Positions 11,747 through 51,874 of a stretch of 64,000 bases of DNA are shown here, in pieces; position 1 is the first letter of the stretch; each line of letters starts with the position of its first letter. The stretch comes from Hypomesus transpacificus (Eukaryota; Chordata; Actinopteri; Osmeriformes; Osmeridae). Location of the stretch: the NCBI RefSeq assembly GCF_021917145.1, contig NC_061068.1:1896884-1960883 (forward strand), read 5' to 3'. Under the pieces are notes generated by a model. It did no database searches and was not told the origin of the DNA. It was given only the letters and a program-made list of their open reading frames with translations. Both the position numbers and the translations under genes were made by a program.

Positions 11747-14700
11747 ATGTCCCAACTCCAGTTTCAGTGTCCAGGTAACTCCATGTCTGGAGCTGTGCTA
11801 GCTACCACCCCACTGCAACTACCACCCCACTCCCAACCTGGCTACAGTATTCCCTGTTCATCGAGCCCCCTGCCCTCAGAGAGTGCCAGTCACCCTCTCA
11901 GGAGCTCTGCTCTGCCCTCAGGCTCAGCCACTGTCTTCAGCCCCCAATCAGGTTTGTGTGTGTGTTTTCACTTTCAGGTTGATTTCCAAGCATCAACACA
12001 AGATACACAGAGCCATCGACTTCTATCTGAATAACTAACAAGCCTCACTCTCTGTTGTTCTGTTTTAGTATCTAACATGGCAAACCCTAAAGAGAAGACC
12101 CCCATGTGTCTGGTGAATGAGTTAGCCCGTTTTAATAAAATCCAGCCCGAGTACAAACTGCTGTGTGAACAAGGACCAGCTCATTCGAAGGTAACAGCAG
12201 CCATTGACTTCCTCTGCAGAAAACCTGAGACTCGTGTCACCACTGGGAGGGTATACGCCTACCTAGTGCCAGAGGCCTCATCCTGTCTTTGTGTCTGTTC
12301 CCTCCCCCAGATGTTCTCAGTGAGACTGACCCTGGGAGATCAGCGCTGGGAGGCAGAGGGGACCAGCATTAAGAAAGCCCAGCACTCGGCTGCTGCGTCC
12401 GCCCTGGCCCAGACCACCCTGCCCAAACCCAGTATGAGGAGTCCCCGCAACACAGGCAAGAACCCAAACGCTCTGTTCCAAGAGGCAGACCCTGCGTGTG
12501 CCTGTGTGTGTGTGTGCTCTGTTCTGTCACACATATTTTATATTATTTCCAATACCTTTGTAAATAATCCAGGTTTCTGTTTTGTTTTGGGGGGTGGTGG
12601 TGGTATATTTGTAGTAGACTGCATGACACACACCATGGAGTTGAATGCACTTTGTATGAAGCTGGGGAAGAAGCCTATATACAAACCTATTGACCCGTAC
12701 CCTGGTATGAGACCCAGCTTCAACTACAACATCAGGCCTCCTGGGCCCTACCAGCGCTCCATGCAACAGTGAGTCCACTCACCTCACCCTTCCGTGAGCT
12801 GTAGTACCTTCCCACAGGCAGGGTGTCCAGCATGAGTGAAAGGTGCATGTCGTGCTGTCCTCCCCAGGTACTACTATCCGTTTCCCCCAGTGGGGACAGT
12901 GCTCTACCACATGGAGCTGTCCATCGGAGGCCAACAGTTCCATGGGAAGGGGCGCACACGGCAGCTTGCCAAACACGACGCAGCGGCCAAGGCGCTCAAA
13001 GTGCTGCAGAAGGAGCCAATGCTGCAGGAGCTGCCAGAGGTGAGAGAGGGAGATCGACACAAACACGGTTAGTGGGATGGAACAGCTTCACTGTAGGTCA
13101 TTGTCCAATGCTTGACATTGCAGATAAACGGAGAACCCGAGGAAGAGAATCTCAACAAATCCGAAATCAGCCAAGTGTTTGAAATTGCACTTAAGAGGAA
13201 CTTGCCAGTTGACTTTGAGGTTTGAATGGATCTCCATGTACACATGTAAACCTGTTGCACAGTTTTGGATCAATCGTGCATTCATTTCAATTGAGCAGGT
13301 TGAGTCGGGTACTAAAAGAGATCTCTTACCGTGCCGTTACGTTCCTGCCCCCCCCATCCCGCCCTCCCGCCCCAGGTTCTGCAGGAGGCCGGCCCTCCGC
13401 ACATGAAGAGCTTCATGGTGCGTGTGACCGTCGGGGAGTTTTCTGGGGAAGGTGAGGGCAAGAGTAAAAAGATCGCCAAAAAGCTAGCAGCCACGGCAGT
13501 GCTGGAAGAGCTGAGGAGGCTGCCCCACCTGCCCACCGTGGAGAAGATGCTGCCACGGATCAAGAAGAAAACCAAGTCCATCATCAAGGTGAGGGCCTCA
13601 GACGACACTGACAAAGTCAGTTTAACCTGGAGGGAGGCGTAGCTAAGCTGTTGGTGACCTTCCAACCATGCTCCCGAGGGCTGTCGCTGACGTGTGTGTG
13701 GGGGTCAGATGGCTGAGCGGTTAGGGAGTAGGGCTATTAATCAGAAGGTTGTTGATTCGATTCCCGGCCGCGCCAAATGATGTTGTGTCCTTGGGCAAGG
13801 CACTTCACCCTACTTGCCTCGGGGAGAATGGGAGAATGTCCCTGGACTTACTGTAAGTGGCTCTGGATAAGAGCGTCTGCTAAATGACTACATGTACATG
13901 CGTGCCCTGCAGCTGCAGACGAGCCCCGAGTACGGCCAGGGCATGAACCCCATCAGCCGCCTGGCTCAGATCCAGCAGGCCAAGAAGGAGAAAGAGCCCG
14001 AGTACAACATGGTAACAGAGAGGGGCCTGCCTCGACGCAGGGAGTTTGTCATGCAGGTCAGTAGAGCCAGGAACTGACAGCAGGCTGCTTGAGGAATGGC
14101 CTGGAATTCACAATGGTCGTCTGTTTTCTTTTGAACAGGTGACTGTGTGTGGTCAGTGTGCTGAGGGGATGGGTCCCAGTAAGAAGGTGGCCAAGAGGAA
14201 CGCAGCAGAGAAGATGCTGGAGCTGTTGGGATACAAAGTGCCTCAGCCTCTGCCCCCCAAACCGGCACTTAAAACAGATGAGAAGGTATTGTTGCGCTTT
14301 GCACATGGTTCGCAGCATGGCTAGATTAGGACATCGAGATTGGTGTGACACGGCAGGATCTAGTGTTGTAGCTGACCTGTGTCTGTGGTCAACTGAAGGC
14401 TCCTCTGAAGAAGCCAGGAGATGGACGGAAGGTGACCTTCTTTGAACCAGGTTCTGTGGAGGATGTCGCTCTGGGTGACCATCAGGGGAGAGGTGCTTTG
14501 AGTCCTCATACTCCTATGTCATATTTGGAATGCTTTGCATGATCTATAATAGTCATTGTCACAGTATTTGAACGAATTATGGTTCATGCATTCTGTGATG
14601 GCATAACTTTCATCCTCGTATTTATAATGGGTATGCTCTCTGCCCCTCCCCCCCTCCCCCTCCAGTGTCCTCCAAAGAGGAAGACTTCCGCATACCTTAC

Positions 14701-50700: not shown

Positions 50701-51874
50701 TTTACTGTACTCTACTCTGCTGTGCTCTATTCTGCTGTATTCTACTCTGTTCTGATTCGCTGTACTCTACTTTACCATAGTCTGCTGTAGCCTATTAAAC
50801 TAACAAGTCCCTTCTCCAGGTCCTGCTAAGCCTCTGTATACAGAGGCAAGCTTACTGTACTGAACGTCCGGCTGTAATCTCCACTGTATTGATAAAAGAC
50901 TGACCCTCCCCCTGACATCACCACAGAGAATGACATGAGTGGACCTCAGATTGTCTGCTTTACACCTGAACACACGAGGCAGCGGGTTTCACCAATATAT
51001 GGCTCAATCAGCGTGACTGTGTTTGTTAATCACAAGAGGCCAGGGGGGTTCAGTTTAGACAAGACTTTAATGTCAAAGCCATTCTGCTCGTGATTGTTAA
51101 TCCACATGATGAATCAATAATGCCAGTATGTGGTCATCTACCCTCATAAATGAAACCAAAGAGTTCTGTCTCTCTTGCCTGCTCTCCCACAACACATGGG
51201 GAGCCAACAAAAGACAGTGTTAAAAATAGAGGATCAGAAACTAATATGGTACTTGAATTGAACGTCACTAGACATGGAGTAATACTAAGAATGTTTACCT
51301 TGGCTGCAACAGACGAACTGGGTTTTTCAAGAAGGTCCCAAAGTTTTTTCCGTTTCTCAGCACAACATGTGGTATCGAAGTCTTCACCCTCTCTGTCTTT
51401 CATGTTGTCCGCCTCTCGTTTGAGCTCCTCGTTCATCTGTTCCTTCTTTTGATGGTATCTGGCCTGGCAACAGGACTCCAGGTAGATCTCGTCGATGCCC
51501 CAGTAGTCCAGTTCTTGACTGAAGGACAAGGCGCACATCTCTTCCATCATGTGTAACTTCCCCGTGCGGTAGAAGTTCAGAATGGATGTGAAAGCCCCGG
51601 GGTGTCGGTCAAAGAAGTACTCATTTTCGTCCAAGTTGTAGTCATCGCATATCTCCATTAACGAGTCGTGGGTGTTGCAATCCCGTAATTTCCCTAAACG
51701 GGTTCGCGGTAACCTATCCAACGTTCGCCACAGAACCTCGTGTGGAAGCCCCCCTACATTCAGTCTTACCCGACGGTAGCATGACTTGCTGCGGATGATG
51801 TCCACCGGCTCAGGTGGAAGCGACGAAGTCGATCTGGAACCAGCTTTGTTCAGCTCCGCTGAGGATTTCTCCAT
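29706..51874 (-). CDS. kcnb1: Voltage-gated potassium channel Kv2.1, two coding exons
   Basis: Delayed-rectifier K+ channel subunit of the plasma membrane; tetramer, neurons and muscle. Exon 1 51874-51299 (192 codons), exon 2 31634-29706; 834 aa (human about 858). The start is ATG 51874 ([20 protein letters not shown]); an in-frame ATG lies 8 codons upstream. T1 tetramerisation domain at about 30-130 ([20 protein letters not shown], zinc-site Cys in ESCCQARYH). S1 193-211, S2 about 235-252, S3 about 265-282, S4 295-314 with regular Arg/Lys ([16 protein letters not shown]), pore filter TVGYGD at 380-385, S6 about 396-418 with PIPIIVNNF. The cytoplasmic tail keeps [27 protein letters not shown] and QNCLFP, which are Kv2.1 landmarks, but the serine-rich FFIES cluster that anchors Kv2.1 at ER-plasma membrane junctions is not seen. 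The intron of about 19.7 kb carries a Tc1 element and a giant minisatellite. Confidence 0.97.
32242..33902 (+). mobile_element. Tc1-like DNA transposon with IR/DR ends
   Basis: A 1,661-bp element inside the kcnb1 intron, flanked by TA on both sides. The termini begin CAGTGCCCTCCAAAAGTATT and are inverted over about 210-220 bases. Each terminal repeat holds two copies of AAAAGTATTGGAACA, one outer and one inner, the IR/DR layout of Sleeping Beauty-like elements. It encodes one transposase frame. Confidence 0.96.
32575..33648 (+). pseudogene. Tc1-family transposase, one in-frame stop
   Basis: DDE transposase frame of 357 codons (start at 32575 or the later ATG 32611) for cut-and-paste movement of its own element. 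Seen: an N-terminal paired-like helix-turn-helix region ([20 protein letters not shown]), a GRPRK AT-hook-like motif, a second HTH ([11 protein letters not shown]), the first Asp in TDETKI, the second in [10 protein letters not shown], the Glu in [10 protein letters not shown] with 34 residues between them (DD34E). A single TAG at 33058-33060 stands where the family usually has Trp, just before the first catalytic Asp; otherwise the frame is uninterrupted. This looks like a young, recently inactivated copy. Confidence 0.93.
33905..38370. other. kcnb1 intron 1, unique sequence
   Basis: About 4.5 kb of intronic sequence with no recognised exon, RNA gene or transposon. A GT tract occurs near 37,530-37,585. 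Conserved non-coding elements could be present but cannot be judged without alignment. Confidence 0.4.
38374..38460. repeat. CA-rich microsatellite
   Basis: Imperfect (CA)n with ACAC/TCAC/GCAC variants in the kcnb1 intron. Translated His/Thr-rich frames here are artefacts. Confidence 0.85.
38851..38912. repeat. (CT)n microsatellite
   Basis: About 60 bases of uninterrupted CT dinucleotides inside the kcnb1 intron. Confidence 0.95.
38913..40332. other. kcnb1 intron 1, unique sequence
   Basis: About 1.4 kb between a CT microsatellite and the giant minisatellite. No exon recognised; a GT tract lies near 39,615-39,650. Confidence 0.4.
40333..44686. repeat. Giant G-rich minisatellite, about 100 units of about 42 bp
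   Basis: Begins in a (GT)n tract and then repeats a unit of about 40-46 bp: TGGGGTGTGTATGGCAGTTC followed by AAGCCTGTGTG, one or two further GT steps, and a run of 5-10 G. Almost all length variation is in the GT count and the G run; the 30-base core is nearly invariant (one G-to-A near 44336). The + strand unit contains no stop triplet, so all three forward frames are open for about 4 kb. These are not genes. The array lies in the kcnb1 intron, with the G-rich strand being the kcnb1 template strand. Confidence 0.98.
45190..45300. repeat. (CA)n / CACACACC microsatellite
   Basis: About 110 bases of CA repeats with periodic CC interruptions in the kcnb1 intron. Confidence 0.93.
50484..50790. 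repeat. Degenerate CTCTG/TCTAC pyrimidine-rich repeat
   Basis: About 300 bases built from diverged 5-mers (CTCTG, TCTAC, TATTC, TGCTC). Long open frames across it reflect the low complexity. Confidence 0.8.

What the first reader, a model, noticed from the sequence alone, without database searches (positions are those of the whole stretch)
11747..51874. STAU-RDH10-SBSPON-KCNB block mirrors human 8q: retained paralogues on the 20q13 side
Here the order is stau1 (+), RDH10-like (-), SBSPON-like (+), kcnb1 (-), then ptgis. From memory the human 8q13-q21 order is KCNB2, SBSPON, RDH10, STAU2 with alternating strands, the same arrangement read in reverse. Human STAU1, KCNB1 and PTGIS sit together on 20q13 without RDH10 or SBSPON neighbours. 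The simplest reading is that the pre-duplication block had all four families and this fish keeps the RDH10 and SBSPON copies on the 20q13 side. If so, these are distinct ohnologues, not rdh10 and sbspon.
Basis: partly seen in the sequence, partly recalled or inferred. Interest (0 to 1): 0.72.

Follow-up and report, generated by a model that had tools for sequence, protein, structure and literature searches.

The report
Extra retinol-dehydrogenase and spondin gene copies
A fish chromosome carries a diverged copy of a vitamin-A enzyme gene (RDH10) and of a secreted-protein gene (SBSPON) between stau1 and kcnb1, where the human chromosome has neither, so they are probably old whole-genome-duplication copies that fish kept and people lost.

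Summary
The window reads stau1 (+, 11747-15564), an intact five-exon RDH10-like gene (-, 19314-17201, 316 aa), an intact five-exon SBSPON-like gene (+, 23177-24769, 268 aa), kcnb1 (-, 51874-29706) and ptgis (-). stau1 and ptgis are clearly the 20q13-side genes by sequence; kcnb1 more modestly. A printed list gives human 20q13 as STAU1-DDX27-ZNFX1-KCNB1-PTGIS. Other printed tables put SBSPON, RDH10 and KCNB2 together on 8q, with STAU2 on the far side from KCNB2. The inner 8q order and the strands are recalled. In small trees using recalled sequences, the RDH10-like protein falls outside human RDH10 + zebrafish Rdh10a in 9 of 9 settings (alternatives AU p 0.004-0.031). Not checked, because the genome server did not answer in 21 tries: whether this fish also has rdh10 and sbspon beside kcnb2/stau2. 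A broad tree is also missing. Verdict: probable (about 0.75), a new member of a known kind.

The parts
11747..15564 (+). stau1 (20q13-side Staufen), several coding exons
   Evidence: ATG and ORF pieces; dsRBD5 piece best hit STAU1 4dkk; dsrm domain; 305/385 to recalled STAU1 against 171/346 to recalled STAU2
17201..19314 (-). RDH10-like short-chain dehydrogenase, exons 19314-18862, 18135-18037, 17911-17766, 17563-17432, 17321-17201; 316 aa; TGAGGALG at residue 42, N145-S173-Y186-K190; lacks about 25 residues that recalled human RDH10 has after the first VR
   Evidence: exons, splice sites, motifs; Pfam adh_short 4.2e-48; nearest solved relatives HSD17B13 and HSD17B11; comparison with recalled RDH10
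23177..24769 (+). SBSPON-like protein, exons 23177-23411, 23584-23775, 23867-23945, 24070-24252, 24652-24769 (stop included); signal-peptide-like start (by eye), somatomedin-B-like stretch, TSP1, SBSPON C-terminal domain; 268 aa
   Evidence: exons and splice sites; Pfam TSP1_spondin 1.9e-16, SBSPON_C 1.3e-15; 133/256 identical to recalled human SBSPON
29706..51874 (-). kcnb1 (Kv2.1), exon 1 51874-51299, exon 2 31634-29706, intron 19,664 bases; 834 aa
   Evidence: PDB KCNB1 chains 386 bits; Pfam Kv2channel; of 42 columns that differ between recalled KCNB1 and KCNB2, 22 follow KCNB1, 13 KCNB2, 7 neither
53856..60640 (-). ptgis (prostacyclin synthase), exon pieces only; ends approximate, first exon placed by eye
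   Evidence: ORF pieces; 54359-54736 best hits prostacyclin synthases 3b98, 2iag, 3b6h; the P450 piece 53856-54053 is below the Pfam cut-off, 19.9 against 22.8 bits

Best explanation
The block is the 20q13-side copy of an ancestral STAU - RDH10 - SBSPON - KCNB segment that existed before the early vertebrate genome duplications. The RDH10-like and SBSPON-like genes are the 20q13-side ohnologues of RDH10 and SBSPON, kept in this fish and absent between STAU1 and KCNB1 in human. Shown: the genes, their order and strands, and intact coding structure; stau1 and ptgis by sequence. Inferred: the timing of the duplication. Likely function, also inferred: the RDH10-like protein is a membrane-anchored retinol dehydrogenase of the SDR16C group with a complete N-S-Y-K catalytic set, able to turn retinol into retinal and so add to retinoic-acid supply; the SBSPON-like protein is a small secreted matrix protein.
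For: Order and strands in the window. Human 20q13 listed as ARFGEF2, CSE1L, STAU1, DDX27, ZNFX1, NCRNA00275, KCNB1, PTGIS, B4GALT5 (passage of PMC3635907). Human C8orf84 (alias of SBSPON, recalled), TERF1, RPL7, RDH10 and KCNB2 listed within 250 kb of one SNP at 8q21.11 (passage of PMC3297573). KCNB2 in a segment ending at 73.993 Mb, TERF1 and STAU2 in one starting at 74.016 Mb (passage of PMC2851616). In cattle KCNB2 at 34.9-36.1 Mb, RDH10 with STAU2 at 36.6-37.7 Mb (passage of PMC12075139). The lists also share EYA2/EYA1, NCOA3/NCOA2 and ARFGEF2/ARFGEF1, which supports 20q13 and 8q as paired blocks. Divergence: RDH10-like 186/309 to recalled human RDH10, while recalled human RDH10 and zebrafish Rdh10a agree at 272/339. 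Trees: the window protein outside human RDH10 + zebrafish Rdh10a is best in 9 of 9 settings, by 7.8-16.9 log units, AU p of the alternatives 0.004-0.031.
Against: The window protein has the longest ingroup branch (0.36), so attraction to the outgroup is possible. With the N-terminal columns and the insert region dropped the lead falls to 7.8 log units and the KH and SH tests no longer exclude the alternatives (p 0.056). A survey of SDR genes in 29 animals names dhrs12, hsd11b1, rdh14 and hsd17b12 as duplicates from the early duplications, not rdh10. DDX27 and ZNFX1, between STAU1 and KCNB1 in human, were not recognised by eye in the ORFs listed here, so the interval has changed in one lineage. 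kcnb1 leans to KCNB1 only modestly in the core (22 columns against 13). No second rdh10 or sbspon could be looked for in this genome.
Confidence: 0.75

Rival explanations
1. The RDH10-like gene is one already named in some fish, such as rdh10b, so it is real but not new. This does not exclude the ohnologue reading.
For: Zebrafish rdh10b is called a paralogue of rdh10a, expressed mainly in Kupffer's vesicle and notochord. Nile tilapia has rdh10-a and a tandem rdh10-b pair on LG5, and rdh10 is in neither of the survey's lists of duplicates from the teleost or the early duplications.
Against: From memory zebrafish rdh10b lies in an 8q-like block and is close to human RDH10; not checked here. The window gene lacks the roughly 25-residue stretch of the recalled RDH10 proteins.
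Confidence: 0.15
2. rdh10 and sbspon were copied together from the kcnb2/stau2 block into the stau1-kcnb1 interval later, in the fish lineage, and then evolved fast.
For: SBSPON and RDH10 are close neighbours on human 8q, so one segmental copy could carry both.
Against: The copy would have had to land in the matching interval with matching order and strands. Joining the window protein to zebrafish Rdh10a is rejected by the AU test in 9 of 9 settings, p 0.004-0.031, though by KH and SH in only 8 of 9; recalled sequences.
Confidence: 0.06
3. This is the stau2/kcnb2 block itself, so the two genes are plain rdh10 and sbspon.
For: The KCNB core is close to both paralogues: 431 of 470 residues match recalled KCNB1 and 424 match recalled KCNB2.
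Against: stau1 by dsRBD5 and by 305/385 against 171/346; ptgis next door; RDH10-like only 60% to recalled human RDH10.
Confidence: 0.02

Closest known systems
RDH10 (SDR16C4), the 8q-side retinol dehydrogenase
   Same: SDR motifs, catalytic N-S-Y-K, C-terminal DKCMYPFI motif; in both blocks the neighbours are Staufen, SBSPON and KCNB family genes
   Different: 60% identity to recalled human RDH10; no roughly 25-residue stretch before the TYTCDV region; TGAGGALG where recalled RDH10 has TGAGSGLG; neighbours are stau1 and kcnb1
SDR16C5 (RDHE2), HSD17B11 and HSD17B13
   Same: Same SDR16C group (recalled); recalled SDR16C5 also lacks the extra stretch; HSD17B13 and HSD17B11 are the nearest solved structures
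   Different: Recalled SDR16C5 only 135/288 identical and without the DKCMYPFI ending
SBSPON (C8orf84)
   Same: TSP1 and SBSPON_C domains, same HSF(I/L)FI ending
   Different: 133/256 identical to recalled human SBSPON; neighbours are the RDH10-like gene and kcnb1

Membership tests
RDH10 family | Classical SDR fold and cofactor motif TGxxx[AG]xG (motif recalled) | tested here: met
   Pfam adh_short 4.2e-48; TGAGGALG at residue 42
RDH10 family | Catalytic N-S-Y-K (recalled) | tested here: met
   N145, S173, Y186, K190
RDH10 family | Closer to RDH10 than to SDR16C5 | tested here: met
   186/309 against 135/288, recalled sequences
RDH10 family | The roughly 25-residue stretch of recalled human and zebrafish RDH10 | tested here: not met
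   Gaps of 19 and 6 residues in the alignment to recalled human RDH10; so it is filed as an RDH10 paralogue, not as RDH10 itself
RDH10 family | Retinol dehydrogenase activity | not testable with these tools
   Needs an enzyme assay
SBSPON family | TSP1 and SBSPON C-terminal domains | tested here: met
   TSP1_spondin 60.5 bits (cut-off 41), TSP_1 25.5 (21.6), SBSPON_C 57.9 (27)
SBSPON family | Somatomedin-B domain | tested here: inconclusive
   21.6 bits, just under the 23.1 cut-off, residues 52-78 only
2R ohnologue on the 20q13 side | The paired block holds the same four families | tested here: met
   Window against printed lists for 20q13 and 8q; that C8orf84 is SBSPON is recalled
2R ohnologue on the 20q13 side | Same order and strands in the paired block | tested here: inconclusive
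   KCNB2 and STAU2 lie on opposite sides; the inner order of SBSPON and RDH10 and all strands on 8q are recalled
2R ohnologue on the 20q13 side | Branching outside the RDH10 clade of ray-finned fish and tetrapods | tested here: inconclusive
   Best in 9 of 9 settings, AU p of alternatives 0.004-0.031, KH and SH not significant in 1 of 9; recalled sequences and few taxa
2R ohnologue on the 20q13 side | Separate rdh10 and sbspon near kcnb2/stau2 in the same genome | not tested
   The genome search unreachable in 21 of 21 tries (first, last)

The most novel reading that the evidence does not exclude
Ray-finned fishes keep an undescribed RDH10 ohnologue and SBSPON ohnologue from the early vertebrate duplications, lost in mammals; the RDH10 one supplies retinal for retinoic-acid synthesis beside rdh10a and rdh10b and could help explain why depletion of Rdh10a in zebrafish has modest effects.
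Probability: 0.35. Interest if true: 0.6.

Novelty: new member of a known kind. Interest (0 to 1): 0.42.

Why it matters
RDH10 is described as a core part of the machinery that makes retinoic acid in embryos. The zebrafish Rdh10a study saw modest loss of signalling on depletion and named other Rdh enzymes, incomplete depletion and stored retinal as possible reasons (passages of PMC4578954). A further RDH10 copy with an intact active site would be a direct candidate, in fish that have it. For genome evolution, the two genes would complete a four-family block kept on both sides of the 20q13/8q pair, which helps to reconstruct the ancestral order and the losses in tetrapods.

Tried and rejected
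Genome check: the genome search on the window's own assembly did not answer in 21 of 21 tries, with waits of up to about five minutes between some. So the key check, rdh10/sbspon beside kcnb2/stau2, was not made.

Relatives elsewhere: one scan of genome contigs with the SBSPON-like protein (10 stretches matched a pattern, none a relative) and one of viral contigs with kcnb1 exon 2 (1 stretch, no relative), in the hope of stray fish DNA. The RDH10-like protein was not scanned.

Papers: ten searches. The titles and abstract starts shown name no RDH10 or SBSPON ohnologue between stau1 and kcnb1; three searches returned nothing. Passages of PMC8967306 and PMC10050752 gave no position information. 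Supplementary files could not be read, so the SDR survey's rdh10 tree was not seen.

Rejected: that the block is stau2/kcnb2. Structure prediction was not tried, because the spliced proteins cannot be read from the window in one frame, as that tool asks. Control added after writing: dropping the badly aligned insert region (9 columns) kept the tree result (AU p 0.004), and dropping the first 32 columns too weakened it (AU p 0.028-0.029; KH and SH 0.056).
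Full report
What is there. On the plus strand a Staufen gene runs from an ATG at 11747 to a stop at 15564. On the minus strand a five-exon RDH10-like gene runs from 19314 to 17201; 4 of 4 introns are GT..AG and the joined exons give 316 residues without a stop. On the plus strand a five-exon SBSPON-like gene runs from 23177 to 24769; 4 of 4 introns are GT..AG and it gives 268 residues. On the minus strand kcnb1 has exon 1 at 51874-51299 and exon 2 at 31634-29706, 834 residues, with a 19,664-base intron. 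Prostacyclin synthase pieces follow on the minus strand. Upstream, at about 1000-10000 on the plus strand, lies a polybromo-like gene; one bromodomain piece and one HMG-box piece were tested.

Which paralogues flank the pair. The last dsRNA-binding piece of the Staufen gene hits STAU1 4dkk best. A hand join of its exons matches recalled human STAU1 at 305 of 385 aligned residues and STAU2 at 171 of 346. The 4 distinct PDB sequences hit by kcnb1 exon 1 at E up to 1e-30 are all named KCNB1; no KCNB2 chain appeared, so this does not separate the two. Of 42 core columns at which recalled KCNB1 and KCNB2 differ, the window follows KCNB1 at 22, KCNB2 at 13 and neither at 7, a modest preference. ptgis next door supports the 20q13 side.

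The human blocks. A printed copy-number table lists 20q13 as ARFGEF2, CSE1L, STAU1, DDX27, ZNFX1, NCRNA00275, KCNB1, PTGIS, B4GALT5 (passage of PMC3635907). A Crohn's disease scan lists C8orf84, TERF1, RPL7, RDH10 and KCNB2 within 250 kb of one SNP at 8q21.11 (passage of PMC3297573); that C8orf84 is SBSPON is recalled. An ovarian-cancer table puts KCNB2 in a segment ending at 73.993 Mb and TERF1 and STAU2 in one starting at 74.016 Mb (passage of PMC2851616). A cattle study puts KCNB2 at 34.9-36.1 Mb and RDH10 with STAU2 at 36.6-37.7 Mb of chromosome 14 (passage of PMC12075139). So the four families lie together and KCNB2 and STAU2 are on opposite sides. The order of SBSPON and RDH10 between them and the strands are recalled, not tested. 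The same lists share EYA2/EYA1, NCOA3/NCOA2 and ARFGEF2/ARFGEF1, which supports the two blocks being ohnologous.

What the extra genes are. The RDH10-like protein is a classical SDR, with TGAGGALG at residue 42 and N145, S173, Y186, K190. Against recalled human RDH10 it lacks 25 residues in two gaps. The SBSPON-like protein is 133/256 identical to recalled human SBSPON and has the SBSPON_C domain.

Trees. With human RDH10, zebrafish Rdh10a and human SDR16C5 from memory and HSD17B13 letters, 262 columns, the topology with the window protein outside human RDH10 + zebrafish Rdh10a wins by 16.9 log units; both alternatives have AU p of 0.005. With single outgroups and three models it wins in 6 of 6 runs, AU p of the alternatives 0.005-0.031. 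Without the badly aligned insert region it wins by 15.0 log units (AU p 0.004); without the first 32 columns as well it wins by 7.8 (AU p 0.028-0.029), and there the KH and SH tests, p 0.056, do not exclude the alternatives. The branch of the window protein is 0.36 and the stem of the RDH10 pair 0.22. These trees argue against a teleost-duplication copy, but the recalled letters and few taxa make them a lead and not a proof. No tree was made for SBSPON.

Reading. A teleost-specific duplication cannot by itself place rdh10 and sbspon in the stau1 block. A later copy of the two from the 8q-type block would have to land in the matching interval. The simplest reading is retention on the 20q13 side from the early vertebrate duplications. 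A survey of SDR genes in 29 animals names dhrs12, hsd11b1, rdh14 and hsd17b12 as early-duplication pairs and not rdh10 (PMC8073704: passages, and section 2.2 read); it reports three rdh10 genes in Nile tilapia, two of them a tandem rdh10-b pair on LG5. Whether that rdh10-b is this gene under another name is open.

Limits. The genome server did not answer in 21 of 21 tries, so the presence of rdh10 and sbspon near kcnb2/stau2 in this species is untested.

Noticed in passing
30957-31070 (-): Rfam family K_chan_RES (potassium channel RNA editing signal, RF00485) matches kcnb1 exon 2 at 89.5 bits against a cut-off of 51. I know the family from Kv1.1 (recalled); whether kcnb1 here forms the hairpin or is edited is unknown.
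   Followed up: no
40354-44685: A minisatellite of about 107 copies of a unit of about 39-41 bases lies inside kcnb1 intron 1 and leaves very long open frames in all three plus-strand frames.
   Followed up: no
21810-22626: Eleven near-identical 74-base tandem copies (99% matches) just upstream of the SBSPON-like gene.
   Followed up: no
32572-33648 (+): A Tc1/mariner-like transposase (name recalled) with a DDE_3 domain, interrupted by one in-frame stop, inside kcnb1 intron 1.
   Followed up: partly
13757-13896 (+) and 61905-62033 (-): Two copies, 85% alike over 140 aligned bases and in opposite directions, of what looks like one dispersed repeat; the first lies within stau1.
   Followed up: partly
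about 1000-10100 (+): A polybromo-like gene (bromodomain and HMG-box pieces) sits directly upstream of stau1; human PBRM1 is on 3p21 as I recall, so this neighbourhood differs from human.
   Followed up: no
stau1-kcnb1 interval 15565-29705: No DDX27- or ZNFX1-like coding sequence was recognised, by eye, in the ORFs of 80 aa or more, although human has both between STAU1 and KCNB1.
   Followed up: no
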